DNA of 38,399 bases, taken from the IMG/VR virus record IMGVR_UViG_3300050124_000017, positions 1-38,399 of that record, one strand, 5' to 3'. The number at the start of each line of letters is the position of its first letter. The stretch's first letter is position 1. Source of the stretch: a virus. This document shows, in pieces, positions 23,451 to 38,399 of the stretch. The position numbers and the translations under genes were made by a program. The notes under the pieces were generated by a model. It worked only from the letters and a program-made list of their open reading frames with translations. It ran no database searches and was not told the origin of the DNA.

Positions 23451-23837
23451 GTGAACAATATCAAGAAAAACATAGCCAAAAACTTAAAAAGCCTTAGGGA
23501 AGAAAGAAAAATAACTCAAATACAACTAGCTGAAGTGCTAGGCGTAAAGCATAATACGGTTTCATCATGGGAAAATGGTACAAACTCTATTGATATATCT
23601 TTGGTTATGCAAATATGCAAATACCTAAATGTATCCCTTGATGATATGTTTGGCAGAAAAAGCAAAGACATCCCCACGTTGGAGATGTCAGAAGTTGAGA
23701 AGAAATTAATTTTTAGTTACCGCAATCTTTCCCGCGATAACCAGTTGAAGGTTACTGGCATAATTGAATTTATGTTTGATGAGGAATCAGCTGCAAAAGA
23801 AGAACATGAGGACAAGATTAAAAGAATGGGGAAGTAA
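23451..23837 (+). CDS. CI-like phage repressor (no protease domain)
   Basis: 128 residues from GTG 23451, with AAAGGGG 7 nt upstream. An XRE HTH occupies residues ~7-60 (IAKNLKSLREERKITQIQLA then EVLGVKHNTVSSWENG and LVMQICKYLNVSLDDMFG). The C-terminal ~55 residues form a short helical dimerisation region. No S24/LexA Ser-Lys peptidase domain is present, so RecA-driven self-cleavage is not expected; relief by the antirepressor is more likely. Divergent from the early operon across the operators. Confidence 0.9.
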   Translation: MNNIKKNIAKNLKSLREERKITQIQLAEVLGVKHNTVSSWENGTNSIDISLVMQICKYLNVSLDDMFGRKSKDIPTLEMSEVEKKLIFSYRNLSRDNQLKVTGIIEFMFDEESAAKEEHEDKIKRMGK

Positions 23838-23881: not shown

Positions 23882-25096
23882 ATGGAGGGTCATTTTTATA
23901 AACCAAATTGCAAGTGTCCCAAGGATGCTAAAAAGTGTACCTGCGGAGCCACGTGGTCTTATATCGTCGACATTGGTGTAGATCCCCAAACGGGTAAGCG
24001 CAAACAAGGCAAAAAAGGCGGGTTTAAAACAAAAAAGACTGCGCAACTTGCGTGCGGTCTAGTTATTCAGGAAGTTGAGCAAGGAACCTATATCAAAGAG
24101 TCGGAAATTACCTTTGAAGATTTTTCTAAGGATTGGCTAACAAACTATGAGAATTCCGGGGAGGTCAAAGAAAGCACGGTCAGAACAAGGAAGTATGAGA
24201 TTAATAGGCTCCTCACTTATTTAGCACATATTAAGCTAAAAGATGTCACACGAAAGCGATATCAAGGTGCATTGTATGACCTCAATGAACATAGACTTTC
24301 TAAATCATCAATCATTGGTGCGCACGCAACCGGACGGATGATATTCAAAAAAGCAATCGAGCTTAAACTTATTAAAAGTGATCCTACGCAATTCACCACT
24401 GTGCCAAAAAAAATAAAGACAATTGAGGAATTAGAGGAAGATGAGATTGTAAAGTACCTCGAAAAAAAAGAACTATCCCTATTTCTTAAAACAGCAAAAG
24501 AAAAAGGGCTTGAGAATGATTACCCTATCTTCCTTCTTCTGTCCTACACAGGCATGAGGGTTGGAGAAATGTGCGCCCTCAAATGGAAGGACATTGACTT
24601 CAAGGAAAAGTCAGTCAATATCACAAAGACTTATTACAACCCAACAAGCAACGCGAGGAAATACAAGTTAACTCCACCAAAGACGACGGCATCGAAACGA
24701 AAAATATCAATTGATGAAGTTGTGCTGGATGAATTAAGGAAACACAAGGCCCATCAGAATATAGTCCGGATGAAAAATAGAGCAACATATCACGAAAAGA
24801 ATTTTATCTTTGCAAGGGAAACAGGATACCTGGGATATCCCGAGACCGTAAAGATCGTCGAACGCAGGATGTTCCGACTATTAAAACTAGCAAAGTTAAA
24901 CGAGAGTCTAACGCCTCACTCGCTGAGGCATACTCATACTTCGCTCATGGCAGAGGCCGGGGTAAGTCTTCCAGAGATCATGGAACGGCTCGGGCATAAA
25001 GATGATAAAACAACCAAATGGGTCTATACACATACCACAAAGACAATGAAAAAAGAGGCTTCCCGAAAGTTCAGCGAACTCATGAAAAGCCTCTAG
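23882..25096 (+). CDS. int: Tyrosine recombinase integrase
   Basis: 404 residues from ATG 23882, after GAGAGGGGG. An N-terminal arm-binding domain includes a Cys-rich insert (NCKCPKDAKKCTCGATW) and GKRKQGKKGGFKTKKTAQLA. A SAM-like core-binding domain follows (FEDFSKDWLTNYENSGEVKE). The catalytic domain has Arg226 (TGMRVGEMCAL), Lys267, His346 and Arg349 (HSLRHTHTS), His372 (LGHKDDKTTKW) and Tyr382. All six catalytic residues are in place. It integrates the phage at a host site through the attP region directly downstream. Confidence 0.96.
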   Translation: MEGHFYKPNCKCPKDAKKCTCGATWSYIVDIGVDPQTGKRKQGKKGGFKTKKTAQLACGLVIQEVEQGTYIKESEITFEDFSKDWLTNYENSGEVKESTVRTRKYEINRLLTYLAHIKLKDVTRKRYQGALYDLNEHRLSKSSIIGAHATGRMIFKKAIELKLIKSDPTQFTTVPKKIKTIEELEEDEIVKYLEKKELSLFLKTAKEKGLENDYPIFLLLSYTGMRVGEMCALKWKDIDFKEKSVNITKTYYNPTSNARKYKLTPPKTTASKRKISIDEVVLDELRKHKAHQNIVRMKNRATYHEKNFIFARETGYLGYPETVKIVERRMFRLLKLAKLNESLTPHSLRHTHTSLMAEAGVSLPEIMERLGHKDDKTTKWVYTHTTKTMKKEASRKFSELMKSL

Positions 25097-25098
25097 TT

Positions 25099-25125
25099 AT
25101 TCCACACTTCCATTAGGTGTGGAAT
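25099..25125 (+). terminator. Perfect 9-bp hairpin after integrase
   Basis: ATTCCACAC / GTGTGGAAT with a 9-nt loop begins 3 nt after the integrase stop. Only ATGTTTT follows, so termination may be partial. Confidence 0.6.
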
Positions 25126-25142
25126 ATGTTTTATCAGATTAT

Positions 25143-25386
25143 GTTACCTTTTCGTTACCTTTGGGGTATTTTAGGTATATTTAAACAACTGATATCCTTG
25201 GTATGGGCTAGTTCTAGTATTAAACTTCTGTAATGGTCGCGGTAACTCCTTATGATAAATTAATACTGTAACATCTTATCTCCTGTGCTACAAGGCGCAT
25301 ACAGCAAGAATTTCTCCTTTTTAGCATTGTAACATGTTTAGTCTGTTTCATCACCTTTATTTTGATTACGTTACCTAAATGTTACC
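25143..25386. other. attP region with paired integrase arm-type sites
   Basis: The hexamer GTTACC occurs as two pairs: 25143 and 25154, then 25370 and 25381. In each pair the starts are exactly 11 bp apart (one helical turn), and the pairs flank ~210 bp without genes. An inverted copy GGTAAC lies at 25241. Paired direct repeats either side of a crossover site are typical arm sites for integrases with this N-terminal domain. The core overlap sequence cannot be fixed without the host junctions. The rest of 25097-25460 holds no convincing gene. Confidence 0.72.
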
Positions 25387-25431
25387 CAAATGGGTATGAG
25401 TAGAATAATTAATATTATCACATAGCAGGAA

Positions 25432-25475
25432 ATTAGCCTTATGGCGAGAAAGCTATAAGACTAATGGCTTTTTTT
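25432..25475 (+). terminator. Terminator at end of attP region
   Basis: Stem ATTAG-C-CTTAT-GGC with GCT-ATAAG-A-CTAAT, loop GAGAAA (25432-25465), then GGC and seven Ts (25469-25475) on the plus strand. It would stop rightward transcription before the CWB2 gene. Its 3' arm overlaps the end of the minus-strand RHH gene. Confidence 0.7.
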
Positions 25476-25589
25476 CCAAAGTTCTAATCCTTGCTTAACT
25501 GCTACCTGAAAGTCCATTTCCTTATTAATGCAGATGATCTTAATTTCCTTAATCAATTCTTCGGGTAGACGAACAGTAACGGCTTTCAT
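25461..25589 (-). CDS. Ribbon-helix-helix (CopG/Arc-type) regulator
   Basis: 42 residues from ATG 25589-25587, after AGAGG. The product MKAVTVRLPEELIKEIKIIC then INKEMDFQVAVKQGLELWKK is a bare RHH fold: a beta strand with alternating polar residues followed by two helices. It has its own promoter (25640-25668) overlapping palindromic sites, divergent from the CWB2 gene, so it likely controls itself and possibly that gene. Confidence 0.78.
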   Translation of the reverse strand: MKAVTVRLPEELIKEIKIICINKEMDFQVAVKQGLELWKKSH

Positions 25590-25610: not shown

Positions 25611-25668
25611 GCTTGCTATATTGCTTGCAGTATGATACTACTATACTATGAAAGGATGAATCAGTCAA
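25611..25668 (-). promoter_or_regulatory. Promoter and operator-like repeats for RHH gene
   Basis: The minus strand has TTGACT (25668-25663), a 17-nt spacer and TATAGT (25645-25640). Just downstream are a perfect palindrome AGTATGATACT (25629-25639), a second ATACT 8 bp away, and two GCTTGC repeats 12 bp apart (25611, 25623). Short repeated sites at this spacing suit cooperative RHH dimers. Confidence 0.7.
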
Positions 25669-25743
25669 TATTTAAGGGGGTGAGGGAAAAGAGATAGTTC
25701 ACCAAAAAAGAAGATCCAAAATTGAGAGGAGAAAACAAACTAA

Positions 25744-28311
25744 ATGAAAAAAACTAAAAAAGCCTTAGCATCCTTAACTATCGCAGGTATGATCCTGACA
25801 ATGGTTCCCTTTAACGCATTTGCTACAGGGACAGTCCCAACTCGCTTATTTGGTACAACTGCTGCTCAAACTGCGGTAGCAATCGCAGATCAAACAGGCT
25901 GGACAGGTACAGCAATTCTCGCGTCCTCAGCTTCTTATGGTATGGTTGATGCCCTGACATCTGGCCCGCTCGCTAAATTCTTGAATGCTCCGATCCTTCT
26001 GCAAGAGCCTGGCGCAGTATTGAATGCTTACACCAAAGCTGAACTTCTTAAACTCAATGTTACGAAGGTTTATGTGACTAGTGGAACTGCTGTCATTAAC
26101 CAAGCAGTGCTTAATGAATTAGCAACTATGAATATCACTGTTGAGTCCCTCGGTGGAGCTGATCGCTTCGAAACTTCCGTAAATATCGCTAAGAAAATGG
26201 TCGCTCTCGGCGCACCTGTAACCAAAGTTGCAGTCGCTTACGGCTGGCTGAACCAAGATGCTCTTTCGATTGCGTCGATTGCATCTGCTGCCAATGAGCC
26301 AATTCTCTTAACCGAGAAAAATGCAGTTCCTGCTAGTGTCAAGGCATTCTTAACCGCAAACATTACATCTTCAGATGTTATTGGTGGAACAGGCGTTATT
26401 AGTGATGCTGTAGAAGCTCAATTCCCTAGTGCAACTCGCTATTTTGGAAACACAGCATATGATACAAATGTTGCAGTGCTTAAAGGATTTGACAGTGTAC
26501 TAAAATATGATCATGTCTTTATAGCAAACGGTGAAACAGCAGTTGATGCTTTGACAGGTGCACCTCTTGCTGCAAAATATAATTCTGGGATTGTTCTCAC
26601 CAATGGAACCGTAAATGAGGGAACAACTTATGTGAGTAGCAAACTATCCGCTACCAGCATTGTATCAGCTTTGGGTGGTACAGCGGTTGTTTCGGAAGGC
26701 GTACTCGCAAGTACATCAACCCCTTCTATTACGCCCCCAGTTACACCTCCAGTTACTCCCCCTAGTAACAATGGAGACGGAGGTGCTTATGCCGCAGCAC
26801 AAAGAGTTCAAGTGGCGACAGATGCAGTAGCTAAAGCAGAATTAAGTAAGCTACAAGCAGATGTAGTTTCTGCAAAAGTATTAGTTGATGCTCTTCCTAA
26901 TGACGTTGCAGGAGTTACAAAAAAAGTAGATTTATTAGCAAGACTTGCCACTGTAACCGCACCAGTAATTAGTAATGTAAGTTTTGTATCTAATAATCCA
27001 AACAATACGAAAGCCATGAATGGGGATACTATCACATTAACATTTACGTCAGATAAACCTGTTAATAAATTAAGTAGCTTTAAGATCAACGGAAGCAATC
27101 CCGACACATTCACGGTTTCAGGAAATACTTATACCGCAACGCATTTAGTAGATTCTGGAGATAAAGTAGGAGATGCTGTATTCCAGATCAACGTCCAAAC
27201 TAACGTACTTAATCCAGCATATTCAGTAGATCCAACAGTACCACAATGGTTAGAAGGTATCTATTCGCAAACTATTGAAACAACAACAGATAGTAGTAAG
27301 GTTGGCATAATCGCACAATATGCAAGAATTACAAATGTAAATATTTCATCTAGTAATGCGAATAATACAAAAGCTATGAACGGAGATACTATTACCTTAA
27401 CATTTACTTCTGATGAGTCGGTTACAAAACTCAGCAACTTCAAAATTAATGGTAGCAATCCTAACACATTTACAAATGTTGACAATGTTTATACTGCAAC
27501 ACATTTAGTAGATGTTGGGGATATAATTACCGGGATTCCAGCGACATTCCAAATTAACGTGAAGAATGCGGCAGGTATCGATTCGTTAACTGTTGAAGGG
27601 ACTACGGATGGTAGTTCAGTAACAATAAATCCATCAGTAACGTTAGGGGTGGCAACGGCAACAGCGGGAAAATTTGCAAATGAAGCAAATATTAATGAAA
27701 TGATGACAGCTTTATTCGCAACTGGAGATAGCACAGTACAGGGAATCGCTATTAAGCCAGTGTTCAGTGTTGCAGGTACTACATTAACAATCAAGGGAAA
27801 TAATGTATCACCGGGTTTATTGCAATGGATTGACACCCAATGGGGTGGAAGTTCAATTCCAGTAGCAATTAGCTTTAATAACGGAACACCTCCCATAAGC
27901 ATGACAACGGATCTAAACTGGAATAATGGCTACACAGTATGGGTAGATCTTAATACGCTTGTAACTGGAACAGTGCCAGTAGAAGTTACAATGACCAATG
28001 GGAAAAAAGCTACTTATTCGATAGTAGTATCACCAACAGCAGCAGAATTAGCAGCTTTGACTACAACTCCCTCAGCTATCATGACCGCAGGAATTTCCGT
28101 TGGTGGATATACACCCTATACAGGAGTAGATTTCTCTACAACTAATGCTACGGAAATATATGGAATACAACTTGATGGTATAGTTATAAAACTTCCACAG
28201 GATTCAGATTCTACCCTCTATTTCAATGATCTTAGACCTGCTGGAACTTACTATTTCTATCTCCACTTAAGAACAAGTGGACTTTGGGAGAAAGTTACAA
28301 TTGTAAAGTAA
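25744..28311 (+). CDS. S-layer-type surface protein with CWB2 repeats (lysogenic conversion gene)
   Basis: 855 residues. A signal peptide (MKKTKKALASLTIAGMILTM to about NAFA, residue 27) is followed by three cell-wall-binding type 2 repeats (~residues 32-315; motifs LGGADRFETSVNIAKKM and GNTAYDTNVAVLK). CWB2 domains anchor proteins to secondary cell-wall polymer. A Pro-rich linker (TPPVTPPVTPPSNN) leads to a helical segment, two ~80-residue Ig-like repeats (each with NNTKAMNGDTITLTFTS) and a beta-rich C-terminus. No peptidase or glycosidase motif is seen. The position next to integrase on the repressor strand, with its own flanking signals, marks it as a moron likely expressed in the lysogen. 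It may alter phage adsorption, adhesion or the S-layer. Confidence 0.9.
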   Translation: MKKTKKALASLTIAGMILTMVPFNAFATGTVPTRLFGTTAAQTAVAIADQTGWTGTAILASSASYGMVDALTSGPLAKFLNAPILLQEPGAVLNAYTKAELLKLNVTKVYVTSGTAVINQAVLNELATMNITVESLGGADRFETSVNIAKKMVALGAPVTKVAVAYGWLNQDALSIASIASAANEPILLTEKNAVPASVKAFLTANITSSDVIGGTGVISDAVEAQFPSATRYFGNTAYDTNVAVLKGFDSVLKYDHVFIANGETAVDALTGAPLAAKYNSGIVLTNGTVNEGTTYVSSKLSATSIVSALGGTAVVSEGVLASTSTPSITPPVTPPVTPPSNNGDGGAYAAAQRVQVATDAVAKAELSKLQADVVSAKVLVDALPNDVAGVTKKVDLLARLATVTAPVISNVSFVSNNPNNTKAMNGDTITLTFTSDKPVNKLSSFKINGSNPDTFTVSGNTYTATHLVDSGDKVGDAVFQINVQTNVLNPAYSVDPTVPQWLEGIYSQTIETTTDSSKVGIIAQYARITNVNISSSNANNTKAMNGDTITLTFTSDESVTKLSNFKINGSNPNTFTNVDNVYTATHLVDVGDIITGIPATFQINVKNAAGIDSLTVEGTTDGSSVTINPSVTLGVATATAGKFANEANINEMMTALFATGDSTVQGIAIKPVFSVAGTTLTIKGNNVSPGLLQWIDTQWGGSSIPVAISFNNGTPPISMTTDLNWNNGYTVWVDLNTLVTGTVPVEVTMTNGKKATYSIVVSPTAAELAALTTTPSAIMTAGISVGGYTPYTGVDFSTTNATEIYGIQLDGIVIKLPQDSDSTLYFNDLRPAGTYYFYLHLRTSGLWEKVTIVK

Positions 28312-28347: not shown

Positions 28348-28382
28348 AGAGGGTCCTTGTGCAAAATGTGCAGGGACTCTCT
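28348..28382 (+). terminator. 15-bp hairpin after CWB2 gene
   Basis: The stem pairs 28348-28362 with 28368-28382, with several G-U wobbles and a 5-nt loop (AAAAT). No U-run follows on the plus strand, so it may act with the next hairpin. Confidence 0.55.
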
Positions 28383-28394
28383 AACTATTAGAAC

Positions 28395-28428
28395 AAAAAA
28401 AACCCTCCCCCACCGAAGTGAGAAAGGG
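28395..28428 (-). terminator. Strong terminator of the lysis operon
   Basis: On the minus strand CCCTTTCTCAC, a UUCG tetraloop and GTGGGGGAGGG form an 11-bp stem followed by eight Ts. The G-U pairs exist only on the minus strand, so it is directional, ending the holin transcript; a T5 on the other side may help stop the CWB2 transcript. Confidence 0.88.
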
Positions 28429-28442
28429 CCTTTTTCATGCGC

Positions 28443-28649
28443 TTATTTAATTGTCTTACTAGCCTTCACCCTGCCGTATATGGCGACAGCACTACTTACT
28501 ACACCAACAATAACTGTAGCAAGCTCCACGATGCCTTCCTGGGTCTGTGTGTCGATGGTGAGGTTAAACCCTCCTGCGATAAGTGCAATGACTGTGACGA
28601 GTGATGCTAGGATAGTTTTTGATAGATACCAGGCTTTTTGATCTTCCAT
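28443..28649 (-). CDS. Putative holin (second holin)
   Basis: 68 residues from ATG 28649-28647, with GAAGGA 6 nt upstream. Two hydrophobic segments (LSKTILASLVTVIALIAGGF and TVIVGVVSSAVAIYG) flank a short polar loop with the conserved-looking TIDTQTQEGIVELA, and the C-terminus is basic (RVKASKTIK). This is the layout of small Firmicutes phage holins. Last gene of the lysis operon. Confidence 0.72.
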   Translation of the reverse strand: MEDQKAWYLSKTILASLVTVIALIAGGFNLTIDTQTQEGIVELATVIVGVVSSAVAIYGRVKASKTIK

Positions 28650-28693
28650 TTTAATTCCTTCTTTCTTATTTTTGGATGAAATTGGACAAAGTA

Positions 28694-28864
28694 TTATTCC
28701 TTGTTCTGCATAACGCACGCAAGGACAACGGTTCCGGCTCCTTGATGACCATTAACCTTGGAAGTGTTGTGGATTGTGTCAATGGCTACCTTGATGTCGA
28801 TACGGTCGCTACAAGTTTTTTCCTTTGAACAGTTGTAGCACGGAGTATTTAAACTATAAGACAT
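28694..28864 (-). CDS. 56-residue Cys-containing protein
   Basis: ATG 28864-28862, with a perfect AGGAGGTGA 4-6 nt upstream. The product begins MSYSLNTPCYNCSKEKTCSD, has the CxxC...C spacing of a metal site, and continues IKVAIDTIHNTSKVNGHQGA. Similar short proteins are found near lysis genes in Clostridia prophages. Role unknown. Confidence 0.68.
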   Translation of the reverse strand: MSYSLNTPCYNCSKEKTCSDRIDIKVAIDTIHNTSKVNGHQGAGTVVLACVMQNKE

Positions 28865-29107: not shown

Positions 29108-29932
29108 TTATCCTAGATATTTTCCAACTGCTGTGGCTGTGTCGTATTTTGTGTTGCCGCTCAAAAGAGTCTGGTTTGGATGATTAATTGAACCTCCTCC
29201 CACTACGATCAAATGTTTGGCACTCATGGCATCGGCAGGTACTGAATGATCAGCGGGACGAACAAACACCGCGCAATTACCATTCTTAGCGGCCACATCT
29301 GCCCCGGCCCAATAATCCTCCTTTGTAAATAACAAAACCGCTACATTTAACACGTCTATTACCACCTTCTCTTTATACTGAATACCAAAGTAATCACAAA
29401 TGCCTTTAGCGTGTGCTATGGAAATACCTTGAATAAATGCAGGGTCCTTGAGTTTAACGGAATCAGAAGCAGAGTCAATAAATCCATTTTCAGTCAAAAT
29501 AGCAGGAGCATCAGTATATTTCAGGACATAATCATTAGTAGTTTTAACGCCACGATTCGCCCAACCGCAAGATGCGATTAGACGAGCGAGGACAGCGTTT
29601 GAGGCCTTCTCTGCTCTGCCGCCTGTAGATACTACCCAAACCTCTGAACCTGTCCCACCGCCAGCATTAATATGGATGGCAACAAATAAGTCAACTACAG
29701 CATTATTAGCAATGTCACATCTTGCTTGGAGTGAATCAGTTACGCTATTAATAACTCCGGGTACTTGGCCGCCTGTTCGCGTCATCACGACTTGAATTCC
29801 ATTTGCCTCAAGAAGAGGTTTAAGGCGCAGACCGATATTGAGCGTTATATCTTGTTCGAGAAGTCCATTGCCTTGGGCTCCAGTGTCGAAGCCGCTAGAT
29901 TGATGGCCTGGGTCAATACATACTTTTGGCAT
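29108..29932 (-). CDS. Endolysin: N-acetylmuramoyl-L-alanine amidase with CWB2-like domain
   Basis: 274 residues from ATG 29932-29930, after GGAGG. The Amidase_3 zinc site is visible: His10 (CIDPGHQ), Glu26 (GLLEQD), His87 (VAIHINAGGG) and a catalytic Glu in ILTENGF. It cuts the amide bond between muramic acid and L-Ala. Residues ~190-274 form a second domain ending HLIVVGGGSINHPNQTLL then SGNTKYDTATAVGKYLG. The GNT-YDT--AV-K motif also occurs in CWB2 repeat 3 of this phage's surface protein, so the domain probably binds the same wall polymer. Confidence 0.9.
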   Translation of the reverse strand: MPKVCIDPGHQSSGFDTGAQGNGLLEQDITLNIGLRLKPLLEANGIQVVMTRTGGQVPGVINSVTDSLQARCDIANNAVVDLFVAIHINAGGGTGSEVWVVSTGGRAEKASNAVLARLIASCGWANRGVKTTNDYVLKYTDAPAILTENGFIDSASDSVKLKDPAFIQGISIAHAKGICDYFGIQYKEKVVIDVLNVAVLLFTKEDYWAGADVAAKNGNCAVFVRPADHSVPADAMSAKHLIVVGGGSINHPNQTLLSGNTKYDTATAVGKYLG

Positions 29933-31874: not shown

Positions 31875-31907
31875 AAAGCAAGAGACTATTTAAGTCCCTT
31901 GCTTTTT
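31875..31907. terminator. Convergent terminator
   Basis: Stem AAAGCAAGAGAC / GTCCCTTGCTTT (31875-31886, 31894-31905; one mismatch), 7-nt loop, then Ts on the plus strand. It lies between the plus-strand membrane gene and the end of the late minus-strand operon, and overlaps the last codons of the ejection gene. Confidence 0.75.
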
Positions 31908-34900
31908 AGTATCTCTTTCTTAGCTGTTGCCTTTGAATCAGAGATTGCCGTTGCTAATAAATCAGCCCTTAATTCATCGGGGGATTTTAATTTTGTTTGA
32001 TGAGCGTTGTTATACTTCCCCTGGTTCATAAGTTTATCAAAGGCAGTTAATGTTAATTGGCCTACTCGTTGTTGATATTGTGTCGTTTCTACAGGTGATA
32101 GTGATATTTTTGGATGAGTTTGGGTTTTTTCAATATAGTTCGGGACCATCGTCGGGAACTGGTTTACTAACCCTGATTCGTTCAATCTTCTTAGTTCAGT
32201 ATTTATCTTAGGGCTTACATTCCCTTGACCCTTGGCGATAATACCAGGACTTAGGAACTGTGAGAACGCCCGGCCTAATGGGTTCTCAATCTTCTTCATA
32301 TTTTCACCATAAGGCGTTTGTTTAGGTTGCAGGGTTTCGCTTGCAAAAGGTATCTTTGAGATTAAGGTATTTTTTAATGATGCAGGAAGATTACCGGGAA
32401 CATATGTGTTTCTAACGAGAGGATCAATTGTTCCAGCTAATTGACTTGATAACGTAGGGATAAATTGTGTCGCGTAGTTTTGGGGTAATTGTGCCAAACC
32501 CTCCATGAATCCCTTAGTTCCGCTACCAAGTAAAGTTTTAATTCCCTTCATAATAGACATATTAAACACTGTGTCGCCCGAGGCGTTAAGACCGTCCATT
32601 ATTCCATTTGCTGCGGTTAATGCCATTTGAGTAAGGCTTGAAGTGTCATTTTTTGCCATAATGCTATTCATCTTTGCAGTATCTTTTGGGTTGTCCTTAA
32701 TGGCGTTATAGATTTCTACCCCGACCGATAGGGGGACGCTGAACGGCTGCATCCAATCGTAACTAAATTTACCTAGCACAGAAAAGGGAGAATTGCCAGT
32801 GTTTGTGTCATACGCCCTTAAGTCTGGATCGCTCGAAGCCTTACCCGTTAGTATCCCTTTACTTGCTAACAAATACCCCAATCCTAATATACCTGTACCG
32901 GTTAATCCTTTTGCTATTTCATCAATTGCAACAGCCGCACCCTTGGAGGATTTTATTCCAGCCAATCCGTTTGCTATCCCAATTGGACTATACTGAATAC
33001 CACGTTTGATAATATTTATAGGAGTTTTAGTGAATGGTAAGGCGGCCTCGGTTAATACCGCCCCAGCCTTTCTTCCCAAACTTGCGTTTTTATCTGTACG
33101 CTTAACCTTATTCACAAATTCAGCAATAACGCTAGCATCTTTATATGTTGCTTGCTCGGCTTCTTTTTTTGCGGTGTCAAAGGCAACCTGATCCAGTTTA
33201 GAGAAATCCTTTATACCCTTTGCCTGAGCATAAGAAGCAAGCCTATCTATATAGGCATTTTGAAAGAAGGGGTTATCGCCCTTTTGCAGCAAATCATAAG
33301 TTAACGTGCGGGTTTTTTCCAGTGCGTTGTTTTGGAATACTCTTTTGTTTGGCATATTTAGACCTATACCCTCTTGATACTTATTCGCTCCGCCCAACAA
33401 GTCCTTCTTATTAACCTCAAAATAATCACCTGCTAACTGCTTATACTCTTTATTGACAAGAACAGATTGCGTTCTATCTGCTTGGGGTAACACTTTTTGC
33501 AGTATTCCCGATATACTTTGTGCGGATTTTCTCATACCCATCATAATCGCATTACCGCCGACATTACGAATCTGAGTTTTTGGGTTGAGTAGCATGGAGA
33601 TATGCCGCCATGCATTGATTTTTTCCATTGCTGTAGCGGGCATTTCATTAGCTATTCTAGCCTGTATTTGTTCAAATGCCGAATCATAACTAGCCTGATT
33701 ACCACGCTCAATTTTGGATACCATACTTAATTCGTCAGGAGTTAAATCAACAGTTTTCCAATTCTTGCCGTACTGATCTAACCCTTCCTTATTCAACTTA
33801 TTTAATTGCTTATCGAACGTCATTAAGAAGGTTTGAGGGTCTGCATCTCTCAATATTCTAAACGCCTGCCCGAATTGCCCTGATTCAGTCGCCTTTGTAG
33901 CAGCATTGGATAATAATTCTCTCGCCCTTACGATGTTTCCATCATTTGTAAGCTTGTCTGCTATCATCTTTACTAATGGTGCGGATTCAGGCTTCATGTT
34001 TTTAAGCAAGTCGTCTAACTGAGTGATTGCAGGTTCAAGTCCTTGGTCAAAAACGCTTTGTGCTTTAGCTAAAGTCTCTTTGTTACCAAGTTGCTTATAG
34101 ACTAATGGGTCTGCTGAATAACTATCTCGCAATACATCAGGACGATTAGCATCTGTTCTAATGTTTTCCGATACGCCCCTTTCTTTTAGCCCTGCTGGAA
34201 TTATGGGTTCCGCGCCAACAACCTTTGCATTCCCAATCGGCGCATTAACCGCTTCATTTGGAGTAATGGTGGGAGCAATCTTACCCTTACCGATTGGAGC
34301 AGGTATCGTCTCATTTGGCACAATGGCAGGAATATCCTTTGACAATAAATCATTCTTTGGCAACTGCCCTAAATTTTGTTCAGTGATCGAACTAATAGGA
34401 GCAGGACCGGCATTTTGAATTCCTTCTCGGTTGGTCCAGGTTAGGGGACCAGGTTGTTCAGGAAGAGTTCTTTGGAGGAAAGGAGGTTCCAGGTTTGAAG
34501 TGACCGGAGGTCTTCCAAATACGTTCTTTGCATCTAATCTATTTTGTTGAAGTAACTCGTTTCCAGACATGCCTTGCCTTGGCAGAGTGGGTCCTGTGCG
34601 CCCTAGATTGCCTGTGGTATCTGCGAAGGTTCTGTTGAGTTGTTGAGCTTGTATATCCCTAAGATTAATAGGGGTTCTATATGCATTTTGTATATCTTGA
34701 AGAGGATTTTGTGTTACCTCTGGAAGTTGAGTTGCTTTTCCGAATCTAGCAGAGTCTATTCCTGCTCCTATGCCTTTTCCAATAAGTTGACCTGCACCAT
34801 GTAATGCAGTACCGCCGGCCATGATATAAGGAGTTTGCTTTTCTAGTTCTCCAAGGTTCTGCCCTGTAATAGCGGATTGCAAAGGAGCAATACCTGCTGA

Positions 34901-35389
34901 CCATGTAGCTCCTGCCCTTACCCCTGTTCCAAGTGCAGGTGCTAGTCTTCCAAACTTACCTATTACATTCGCAACGGGTGCTGTTTTGGCTAAAGGTGCT
35001 AATACTTTCCCTGCCAACGCATCCCCCGCCATCCACAGACCCGCGTCACCAGCATTGCTACCGATGAATTGTAACGCCTTATCTCCCAATGTTTTTGGTT
35101 GGTAATTGGGAAGATAAGGTGTTGGTGTTCGGAAATCTCCATTCCTTAAGGCAGCACCTAGTTTATACCCTAATCCTCCTGTTACCGATTGTGTTAAACC
35201 TTGACCTAACTTTTGAAGTACATTTGGTTGTGATGTTGGTGCTTGGGTAGGAACATGGGAAGGGAGAAGGTTAGACTCATCAATATGAAAAGGAGCAGGA
35301 GCAGGAGCTTGAACTAGGCTTGGGAATCTATTATTCTGCTCATCATCTTTATTATTACCACCTAATAAGCTACCAAATCTGTTAGCCAT
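31886..35389 (-). CDS. Large internal virion / DNA ejection protein
   Basis: 1167 residues from ATG 35389-35387, with AGGGGG 8 nt upstream. A Pro/Gln-rich disordered N-terminus is followed by a Gly/Ala-rich hydrophobic segment (ATWSAGIAPLQSAITGQNL), a Pro/Ile-rich linker with two PNE(T/A)(I/V) repeats, a long helical middle (residues ~420-800, including MMGMRKSAQSISGILQKVLP) and further hydrophobic helices (GTGILGLGYLLASKGILTG). Such large helical proteins near the end of podovirus late operons leave the head with the DNA and form a channel across the host envelope. No lytic transglycosylase motif is seen. Confidence 0.72.
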   Translation of the reverse strand: MANRFGSLLGGNNKDDEQNNRFPSLVQAPAPAPFHIDESNLLPSHVPTQAPTSQPNVLQKLGQGLTQSVTGGLGYKLGAALRNGDFRTPTPYLPNYQPKTLGDKALQFIGSNAGDAGLWMAGDALAGKVLAPLAKTAPVANVIGKFGRLAPALGTGVRAGATWSAGIAPLQSAITGQNLGELEKQTPYIMAGGTALHGAGQLIGKGIGAGIDSARFGKATQLPEVTQNPLQDIQNAYRTPINLRDIQAQQLNRTFADTTGNLGRTGPTLPRQGMSGNELLQQNRLDAKNVFGRPPVTSNLEPPFLQRTLPEQPGPLTWTNREGIQNAGPAPISSITEQNLGQLPKNDLLSKDIPAIVPNETIPAPIGKGKIAPTITPNEAVNAPIGNAKVVGAEPIIPAGLKERGVSENIRTDANRPDVLRDSYSADPLVYKQLGNKETLAKAQSVFDQGLEPAITQLDDLLKNMKPESAPLVKMIADKLTNDGNIVRARELLSNAATKATESGQFGQAFRILRDADPQTFLMTFDKQLNKLNKEGLDQYGKNWKTVDLTPDELSMVSKIERGNQASYDSAFEQIQARIANEMPATAMEKINAWRHISMLLNPKTQIRNVGGNAIMMGMRKSAQSISGILQKVLPQADRTQSVLVNKEYKQLAGDYFEVNKKDLLGGANKYQEGIGLNMPNKRVFQNNALEKTRTLTYDLLQKGDNPFFQNAYIDRLASYAQAKGIKDFSKLDQVAFDTAKKEAEQATYKDASVIAEFVNKVKRTDKNASLGRKAGAVLTEAALPFTKTPINIIKRGIQYSPIGIANGLAGIKSSKGAAVAIDEIAKGLTGTGILGLGYLLASKGILTGKASSDPDLRAYDTNTGNSPFSVLGKFSYDWMQPFSVPLSVGVEIYNAIKDNPKDTAKMNSIMAKNDTSSLTQMALTAANGIMDGLNASGDTVFNMSIMKGIKTLLGSGTKGFMEGLAQLPQNYATQFIPTLSSQLAGTIDPLVRNTYVPGNLPASLKNTLISKIPFASETLQPKQTPYGENMKKIENPLGRAFSQFLSPGIIAKGQGNVSPKINTELRRLNESGLVNQFPTMVPNYIEKTQTHPKISLSPVETTQYQQRVGQLTLTAFDKLMNQGKYNNAHQTKLKSPDELRADLLATAISDSKATAKKEILKSKGLK

Positions 35390-37269: not shown

Positions 37270-38399
37270 TTAACCCCATAATTGAATTACTTTTTTAACT
37301 TCGTTTAGTACCCCGCTTTCCTTTGCGTACCCTGCGCCAAGAGAATTTGTTAATTCTGTAAGTAGATTGTTACTTTTGTTTACAAAAAGACCTAAATAAG
37401 TTCCACCTTTATAAATAGTAACAAATGGTGTTGCACTGTGAACTACTGCCATGTAAGTGCCATCATAACTAAATGCTACACCAGCCCCTGCGCCTACTGG
37501 CAAAATTGCAGGGTCTGCTAGCTTAGTGAATACATCACCTGCACGTTTGTATATAGTAACAAATGGGGTAAGATCATGTGCTACCGTCATATAAACACCA
37601 TCTGTGCTAAAAGCTACGCCACGTCCTGCGCCTGCTGGTAAAATTGCAGGATTAGCTAGCTTAGTAAATACATCACCAGCACGTTTGTAGATTGTGGCAA
37701 ATGGTGTTGTATCATATGTTACCGTCATATAAACACCATCTGTGCTAAAAGCTACGCCAAGCCCTGCCCCTGCTGGTAAAACAGTTGGATTAGCTAGCTT
37801 AGTAAATACATCACCAGCACCTTTATAAATAGTAACAAATGGGGTTGCACTGTGAACTACTGCCATGTAAGTGCCATCATAACTAAATGCTACACCAGCC
37901 CCTGCGCCTACTGGCAAAATTGCAGGGTCTGCTAGCTTAGTGAATACATCTCCTGCACGTTTGTATATCATAATATAGGGTGTTGTGCCAATCGCTACTG
38001 CCATGTAAACACCGTCTGAGCTAAATGCTACACCATTACCAATCCCTGTTGGCAAAATTGCGGGGTTTGCTAGCTTAGTGAATACATCTCCACTCCTTTT
38101 ATATATTGTGATATACGGTGTTATATCATGTGCTACTGCCATGTAAGTGCCATCATAACTAAATGCTACACCACGTCCTGTGCCTGTTGGTAGAGTAGCG
38201 GGGTTTGCTAGCTTAGTGAATACATCTCCACTCCTTTTATATATTGTGATATAGGGTGTTGTGGCATGCGCTACTGCCATGTAAGTGCCATCCGTACTGA
38301 ATGCTACCCTATATCCGTAGCCTGCTGGCAAAATTGCAGGGTCTGCTAGCTTAGTAGAAGTATCCTGACTATACACACCAGTAATATAAACAGGGTCGT
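37270..38399 (-). CDS. Tail fibre, C-terminal seven-repeat propeller-like domain (continues from position 1)
   Basis: This is the 3' part of the fibre gene that begins at 920. It encodes seven consecutive 46-residue repeats with the pattern DVFTKLA(N/D)PA-LP-G-G-GVAFS-DG-YM-V followed by TP---IYK. The unit length and the VAFS-DG-YM-V core resemble blades of WD40/YncE-type beta-propellers, and seven is the commonest blade number. A ~45-residue tail follows the last repeat. Repeats 4 and 7 are identical at protein level over ~44 residues, which suggests recent unit duplication or gene conversion. A GTG codon at 38376 is not the start; the frame is open upstream across the contig join. Confidence 0.85.
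   Translation of the reverse strand, partial: DPVYITGVYSQDTSTKLADPAILPAGYGYRVAFSTDGTYMAVAHATTPYITIYKRSGDVFTKLANPATLPTGTGRGVAFSYDGTYMAVAHDITPYITIYKRSGDVFTKLANPAILPTGIGNGVAFSSDGVYMAVAIGTTPYIMIYKRAGDVFTKLADPAILPVGAGAGVAFSYDGTYMAVVHSATPFVTIYKGAGDVFTKLANPTVLPAGAGLGVAFSTDGVYMTVTYDTTPFATIYKRAGDVFTKLANPAILPAGAGRGVAFSTDGVYMTVAHDLTPFVTIYKRAGDVFTKLADPAILPVGAGAGVAFSYDGTYMAVVHSATPFVTIYKGGTYLGLFVNKSNNLLTELTNSLGAGYAKESGVLNEVKKVIQLWG
37399..38364 (-). repeat. Seven tandem 138-bp coding repeats
   Basis: Seven in-frame 138-bp units encode the 46-residue repeats of the fibre. Units 4 and 7, offset by 414 bp (three units), differ at only about two positions over ~135 bp (compare from 37832 and 37418). The other units are more diverged. 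The array is an obvious substrate for recombination and also for mis-assembly. Confidence 0.9.
38273..38399. repeat. Terminal direct repeat, right copy (circular closure)
   Basis: Second copy of the 127-base identity described at 1-127. Removing one copy gives a 38,272-bp circle. The copy spans part of the first propeller repeat of the tail fibre plus unique sequence just upstream of it, so the identity is not merely one repeat unit matching another. Confidence 0.93.

What the first reader, a model, noticed from the sequence alone, without database searches (positions are those of the whole stretch)
25744..28311. Prophage-encoded S-layer-like CWB2 protein as lysogenic conversion factor
An 855-residue secreted protein with three wall-polymer-binding repeats and Ig-like modules lies next to integrase on the lysogeny strand, with its own regulator and terminators. 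It would recoat the host surface in the lysogen. It may mask the phage receptor, and so exclude superinfection, or alter adhesion.
Basis: inference. Interest (0 to 1): 0.75.

Follow-up and report, generated by a model that had tools for sequence, protein, structure and literature searches.

The report
Phage-carried, host-derived wall-anchored surface protein
A virus of Desulfosporosinus-type bacteria carries a secreted protein, borrowed in part from its host, that should coat the surface of cells in which the virus lies dormant; this resembles genes already seen in C. difficile viruses, and probably keeps rival viruses out or changes how the cell sticks.

Summary
Window 25744-28311 (+) encodes 855 aa: Sec signal, three CWB2 repeats (PF04122, E 2e-42), a Pro linker, two 64%-identical Ig-like repeats and a novel C-terminus. 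The record is circular (127-bp identical ends). The integrase is related to Desulfosporosinus elements, and the CWB2 module sits inside that host's CWB2 clade (up to 78% identity); the C-terminus does not. 'Next to integrase' needs correcting: attP (core TAAACTTCTGTAAT, 25221-25234, flanked by GTTACC arms) lies between the two genes, so in the lysogen the gene sits at the opposite prophage end, beside lysis genes. A Desulfitobacteriaceae genome shows the matching junction. Related phages fill this same att-to-lysis slot with other exported proteins (9 of 10 genes exported by a simple heuristic, against 2 of 31 other ORFs). C. difficile phages phiCDIF1296T, LIBA6276, CD2301 and phiCDKH02 carry CWB2 proteins in comparable places. 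Best reading: a lysogenic-conversion surface protein, host anchor plus phage-specific passenger, most plausibly CwpV-like superinfection exclusion. Expression, location and antiphage effect are untested; receptor masking is only one option. 'S-layer-like' overstates it: CWB2 is a generic anchor here. The 'own regulator' is a sub-threshold 42-aa RHH-like ORF. New member of a known kind.

The parts
23451..23837 (+). CI-like HTH repressor of the lysogeny module
   Evidence: Pfam HTH_3 5e-17
23882..25096 (+). tyrosine integrase (arm-binding, SAM-like and catalytic domains)
   Evidence: Phage_integrase 2.5e-28, Arm-DNA-bind_4; 70-73% identical to integrases of Desulfosporosinus acididurans and related records
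25098..25126 (+). terminator-like hairpin behind int
   Evidence: z -5.3
25141..25400 (.). attP: P arm (GTTACCTTTTCGTTACC, about 25146), core, P' arm (GTTACCTAAATGTTACCC, about 25370-25387)
   Evidence: conserved with L005, L006 and L018 up to 25412-25432, where homology stops; pattern scan
25221..25234 (.). inferred att core TAAACTTCTGTAAT, identical to the first codons (ITEVY) of a host MBL-fold hydrolase gene
   Evidence: exact only in the window, G087, G051 and G084 at the MBL start, among 319 loci; junction alignment A3
25461..25589 (-). 42-aa RHH/CopG-like ORF, candidate divergent regulator
   Evidence: PF12441 E 0.001, below cut-off; sequence
25640..25668 (-). sigma70-like promoter of the RHH ORF (TTGACT-17-TATAGT)
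   Evidence: consensus match only
25671..25743 (+). leader kept from host CWB2 genes (TTTAAGGGGGTGAGGG ... GAGAGGAGAAA), without the host palindrome TTTAGATATTGCGCAATGTCTAAA
25744..28311 (+). secreted CWB2 surface protein, 855 aa: signal 1-27, CWB2 x3 about 33-321, Pro-rich linker 324-346, helical stretch about 350-400, Ig-like repeats 406-640, unique C-terminus 641-855
28348..28382 (+). hairpin behind the CWB2 gene (no T-run)
   Evidence: z -6.7
28388..28442 (-). terminator of the lysis cassette, facing the CWB2 gene
   Evidence: z -5.4, T-run
28443..28718 (-). holin-like protein
   Evidence: phrog_34682 holin 3e-06
29108..29932 (-). endolysin: Amidase_3 plus a C-terminal domain resembling the CWB2-derived binding domain of C. 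difficile phage endolysins
   Evidence: Amidase_3 2.8e-37; phrog_435 endolysin; weak match to the phiCDKH02 amidase C-terminus (31% over 35 aa)

Best explanation
This is a lysogenic-conversion gene of a temperate phage of Desulfosporosinus-type bacteria. The phage took the export-and-anchor half (signal peptide plus three CWB2 repeats) and the 5' leader of a host surface-protein gene, joined it to a different C-terminal passenger (two Ig-like repeats and a domain with no relative found), and placed it in a variable cargo slot between attP and the convergent lysis cassette. After integration into the start of a host MBL-fold gene, it sits at the prophage end away from the integrase. In the lysogen the protein is secreted, its CWB2 repeats hold it on a secondary wall polymer, and the passenger projects outward. 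The most likely benefit to the prophage is exclusion of superinfecting phages, at adsorption or more likely at DNA injection as for CwpV; altered adhesion or aggregation is the main alternative outcome. Shown by sequence: domains, host origin of the anchor, att geometry, slot and strand. Inferred: expression in lysogeny, surface location, repression or autoregulation by the RHH ORF, and the antiphage effect (I give exclusion about 0.4 by itself).
For: CWB2 x3 and signal; phage CWB2 module nested in a fully supported Desulfosporosinus clade, 78% identical to a chromosomal gene with homology ending at residue 321; C-terminal 221 aa absent from 46 family genomes. attP between int and the gene, and an MBL-gene/core/P'-arm junction followed by a CWB2 gene in G087. 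Ten other family genomes have no CWB2 gene upstream of the MBL gene. Slot cargo in relatives is exported: 9 of 10 slot genes against 2 of 31 other window ORFs (heuristic), including homologous membrane proteins in L018 and a D. acididurans prophage. C. difficile phages phiCDIF1296T and LIBA6276 place a secreted CWB2 protein between the lysis genes and the integrase; CD2301 and phiCDKH02 place one directly behind the endolysin. CwpV, a CWB2 protein with a repeat-bearing C-terminus, acts as superinfection exclusion, with activity in the C-terminus (PMC4737114).
Against: No expression, localisation or phenotype data. No consensus plus-strand promoter was found upstream. None of 100 integrase or portal relatives carries CWB2, so the particular protein is not conserved cargo. 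The G087 CWB2 gene groups with another paralogue of its own genome and its contig returns to host genes within about 3.5 kb, so it may be a relic, an independent capture or a host gene. The passenger matches no curated family and no PADLOC model; it was not aligned directly with CwpV. CwpV is host-encoded.
Confidence: 0.7

Rival explanations
1. Adhesion or aggregation conversion factor: the passenger benefits the lysogen (biofilm, mineral or cell attachment) and has no antiphage role.
For: Ig-like repeats are common in adhesins (general knowledge); the same Ig-like repeat occurs in a non-phage surface-type protein of G065. CwpV also promotes aggregation (title of Reynolds et al. 2011, cited in PMC6127314).
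Against: No ligand-binding domain recognised. Slot neighbours in relatives are small lipoproteins and membrane proteins, which recall known exclusion proteins more than adhesins.
Confidence: 0.35
2. Passive hitchhiker: a host surface gene picked up by imprecise excision, without selected function.
For: The anchor module is clearly host-derived and the gene lies directly beside attP; it is absent from relatives.
Against: No CWB2 gene lies upstream of the MBL gene in ten genomes; the C-terminus is not host-like; the 855-aa frame is intact; the host palindrome upstream is gone while leader and RBS remain; the slot holds exported cargo in relatives.
Confidence: 0.15
3. Endolysin shield: the lysogen's CWB2 coat limits access of released endolysin, whose binding domain is itself CWB2-related, protecting lysogens from lysis from without.
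For: The endolysin C-terminus weakly resembles the CWB2-derived binding domain of C. difficile phage endolysins; the S-layer obstructs that domain in C. difficile (PMC9045149).
Against: In C. difficile, CWB2 and the endolysin binding domain did not compete for polymer (PMC9045149).
Confidence: 0.1
4. Lytic-phase or virion-associated protein.
For: The gene adjoins the lysis cassette.
Against: Opposite strand to all late genes, hairpins between, Sec signal, host-type wall anchor.
Confidence: 0.05

Closest known systems
C. difficile CwpV (host CWB2 protein, superinfection-exclusion-like)
   Same: Signal peptide, three N-terminal CWB2 repeats, linker, repeat-bearing C-terminus; surface exposed; plausible exclusion role
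   Different: CwpV is host-encoded and phase-variable (PMC4737114); passenger not aligned with CwpV and in no known family; function here untested
CWB2 proteins of C. difficile phages phiCDIF1296T/phiCD211-like, LIBA6276, CD2301, phiCDKH02
   Same: Phage-encoded secreted CWB2 protein between lysis genes and integrase or prophage end
   Different: 28-31% identical over the CWB2 part only; other passengers (none, short tail, or N-terminal leucine-rich repeats); codirectional with the lysis genes there, convergent here
Desulfosporosinus chromosomal CWB2 surface proteins
   Same: Up to 78% identical over residues 1-321, shared leader sequence
   Different: C-terminus unrelated; host palindrome upstream replaced by an RHH ORF region
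C. difficile S-layer protein SlpA
   Same: Three CWB2 repeats
   Different: NCBIfam SlpA equivalog score 63.9 against cut-off 650; no evidence of lattice formation

Membership tests
CWB2 (PF04122) wall-anchored surface proteins | Three tandem CWB2 repeats over the curated cut-off | tested here: met
CWB2 (PF04122) wall-anchored surface proteins | Export signal | tested here: met
   sequence shows a signal-peptide-like N-terminus shared with host CWB2 proteins; no dedicated predictor run
CWB2 (PF04122) wall-anchored surface proteins | Binding to secondary wall polymer | not testable with these tools
   needs a binding assay
S-layer protein (SlpA-type) | SlpA equivalog model over cut-off | tested here: not met
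   63.9 bits against 650
S-layer protein (SlpA-type) | Forms the main surface lattice | not testable with these tools
   no imaging or proteomics
Lysogenic-conversion (moron) gene | Separate transcription unit on the lysogeny strand fenced from lytic genes | tested here: inconclusive
   strand and terminator hairpins met; no plus-strand promoter detected
Lysogenic-conversion (moron) gene | Slot with variable, non-essential cargo in relatives | tested here: met
Lysogenic-conversion (moron) gene | Expressed from the prophage | not testable with these tools
   needs RNA-seq of a lysogen
Superinfection exclusion protein (CwpV-like) | CWB2 anchor plus repeat-bearing C-terminus, exported | tested here: met
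Superinfection exclusion protein (CwpV-like) | Blocks phage DNA entry without blocking adsorption | not testable with these tools
   needs infection assays
Superinfection exclusion protein (CwpV-like) | Sequence match to a known defence family | tested here: not met
   no PADLOC hit; no Pfam family over cut-off in the passenger

The most novel reading that the evidence does not exclude
Temperate phages of CWB2-bearing Firmicutes repeatedly capture a host export-and-anchor module, swap in a phage-specific passenger, drop the host's upstream control element and keep the result in an att-to-lysis cargo slot, giving modular, phage-encoded CwpV-like exclusion proteins.
Probability: 0.3. Interest if true: 0.65.

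Novelty: new member of a known kind. Interest (0 to 1): 0.42.

Why it matters
CWB2 proteins are known as surface and S-layer anchors, and one (CwpV) as an antiphage protein, yet I found no functional study in the papers held of CWB2 proteins that phages themselves carry. A clear att-to-lysis slot of exported cargo in Desulfosporosinus phages, matched by C. difficile phages, makes the question testable: do phages recruit host wall anchors to display exclusion or adhesion modules on lysogens?

Tried and rejected
Full-length AlphaFold model without alignment: mean pLDDT 36.5, unusable. Ig-repeat model from two rows: pLDDT 55.7, only non-significant Ig-fold hits. IMG/VR scans for relatives of the protein or of its CWB2 module: none confirmed. 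No near relative of the phage in INPHARED. RHH palindrome AGTATNATACT at 25629-25639: not above chance genome-wide, dropped as evidence. No Rfam match. 'CWB2 was the host gene beside attB' rejected: not upstream of the MBL gene in ten genomes. Rejected as evidence: CWB2 hits in phage records MT835786 and MT837017 (unverified contigs, no phage genes recognised by eye). Endolysin competition as main mechanism rejected on published binding data.

Full report
WHAT IS THERE. The window is an IMG/VR record of 38,399 bases whose first and last 127 bases are identical, so it is most simply a circular 38,272-bp assembly. It has a terminase, portal and major head protein, an antirepressor, a CI-like repressor and a tyrosine integrase: a temperate tailed phage. 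Nearly all genes run on the minus strand; only the repressor, the integrase and the gene in question clearly run on the plus strand. The ORF at 25744-28311 is intact (855 aa). PF04122 matches it three times. It starts with a signal-peptide-like stretch; after a proline-rich linker and a helical stretch come two Ig-like repeats that are 59-64% identical and a C-terminal 215 residues without recognised family.

HOST AND ORIGIN. The integrase is 70-72% identical to those of Desulfosporosinus acididurans and a Peptococcaceae MAG. All 46 genomes of that family match the CWB2 part, most with many copies. In a tree of 40 CWB2 modules the phage row sits inside a fully supported Desulfosporosinus clade. 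The nearest listed match, a chromosomal gene near valS- and folC-like genes, is 78% identical, and the similarity stops at residue 321, the end of the CWB2 module. The C-terminal 221 residues match nothing in the 46 genomes. The Ig-like repeat recurs in one other genome (G065). So the phage gene is a host export-and-anchor module with a different passenger.

LEADER. Many host CWB2 genes share a leader: a palindrome TTTAGATATTGCGCAATGTCTAAA, then AAGGGGGTGAGGG with a short hairpin, then the ribosome-binding site. The phage gene keeps TTTAAGGGGGTGAGGG (25671-25686; expected 0.03 by chance) and the binding site, but has no copy of the palindrome. A 42-aa RHH-like ORF with its own promoter-like site on the minus strand lies there instead. 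That this ORF controls the CWB2 gene is inference; a consensus plus-strand promoter was not found.

ATT GEOMETRY. L005, L006 and L018 keep the integrase and the stretch to about 25412-25432, with GTTACC repeats on both sides, and then diverge. In genome G087 the sequence from 25221 to about 25397 lies directly against the start of an MBL-fold hydrolase gene, with unrelated DNA to the left of the shared 14 bases TAAACTTCTGTAAT. Those 14 bases occur at the first codons of the same gene in G051 and G084 and in no other of the 319 loci held. This is what an integrated end looks like, so attP lies between the integrase and the CWB2 gene. In the lysogen the CWB2 gene is therefore at the far end from the integrase, beside the lysis genes and next to host DNA. 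A CWB2 gene follows the G087 junction as well, but it groups with another paralogue of that genome and host-like sequence resumes about 3.5 kb on, so it is a relic, an independent capture or a host gene. Ten other genomes have no CWB2 gene upstream of the MBL gene.

THE SLOT. Between the P' arm and the convergent lysis cassette, relatives carry other plus-strand genes: a TM2 protein and a lipoprotein (L005), a membrane protein (L018) with a homologue in a D. acididurans prophage (L307), a lipoprotein (L310), a secreted protein with a copper-amine-oxidase N-domain (L009); the related element L224 has a lipoprotein and a membrane protein; L006 has none. By a hydrophobicity rule 9 of 10 of these slot genes are exported, against 2 of 31 other ORFs of the window. 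This rule is crude and the sample small, but the contrast is large. CWB2 itself is rare: none of 100 integrase or portal relatives has it and two IMG/VR scans found no further carrier.

PRECEDENT. phiCDIF1296T and LIBA6276 carry a secreted CWB2 protein between lysis genes and integrase; CD2301 and phiCDKH02 carry one with leucine-rich repeats right behind the endolysin. They share only the CWB2 part (28-31% identity). PHROGs hold CWB2-type families of unknown function. So a phage-encoded CWB2 surface protein in this kind of place is not new.

MECHANISM. Shown by sequence: domains, host-derived anchor, att geometry, separate unit by strand and hairpins, slot habit. Inferred: expression in the lysogen, wall attachment, and effect. 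CwpV of C. difficile has the same plan (three CWB2 repeats, repeat-bearing C-terminus), its C-terminus carries antiphage activity, adsorption is normal and DNA injection appears blocked (PMC4737114). That makes superinfection exclusion my first choice and a DNA-entry block more likely than receptor masking; adhesion or aggregation is a close second. An endolysin shield is less likely, because published binding tests found no competition between CWB2 and the CWB2-derived endolysin domain (PMC9045149).

VERDICT. New member of a known kind; moderate interest.

Noticed in passing
window 25221-25234; L182, L190, L192, L178: The att core lies in the first codons of a conserved MBL-fold hydrolase gene. 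The phage P' side brings an RBS-like sequence, so integration probably replaces the gene's promoter and start region rather than sparing its end.
   Followed up: partly
L151, L152, L155, L157, L160, L167, L170, L172 (upstream of CWB2 genes): Desulfosporosinus CWB2 genes share a palindrome TTTAGATATTGCGCAATGTCTAAA and an SD-like AAGGGGGTGAGGG 70-145 nt before the start codon: a possible common operator and mRNA leader for host surface proteins.
   Followed up: partly
window 37270-38399 joined to 1-about 850: A protein of about 640 aa crosses the circular junction; it has six 46-aa repeats (138 nt) of YKRAGDVFTKLANPAILP..GVAFS type, beta-propeller-like, perhaps a tail or receptor-binding protein.
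   Followed up: no
window 31886-35389 (-): An 1167-aa late protein without Pfam or PHROGs match beyond chance.
   Followed up: no
L224 / G105 (IMGVR_UViG_3300015611_000015): An element with the same attP carries, after a lipoprotein and a tRNA_anti-like membrane protein, genes resembling corrinoid protein, uroporphyrinogen-decarboxylase-type methyltransferase and a Na+ symporter: unusual metabolic cargo (named by eye).
   Followed up: no
L018 5319-5960 and L307 2949-3767: Homologous single-pass membrane proteins (IPGFRS..KW...IIGYL) fill the same att-to-lysis slot in a metagenomic phage and a D. acididurans prophage: candidate exclusion proteins.
   Followed up: partly
L171 / L179 (G065:C8): An Ig-like repeat array related to the phage passenger lies just before tandem tyrosine-recombinase and DNA-binding genes, which may be a variable surface locus.
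   Followed up: no
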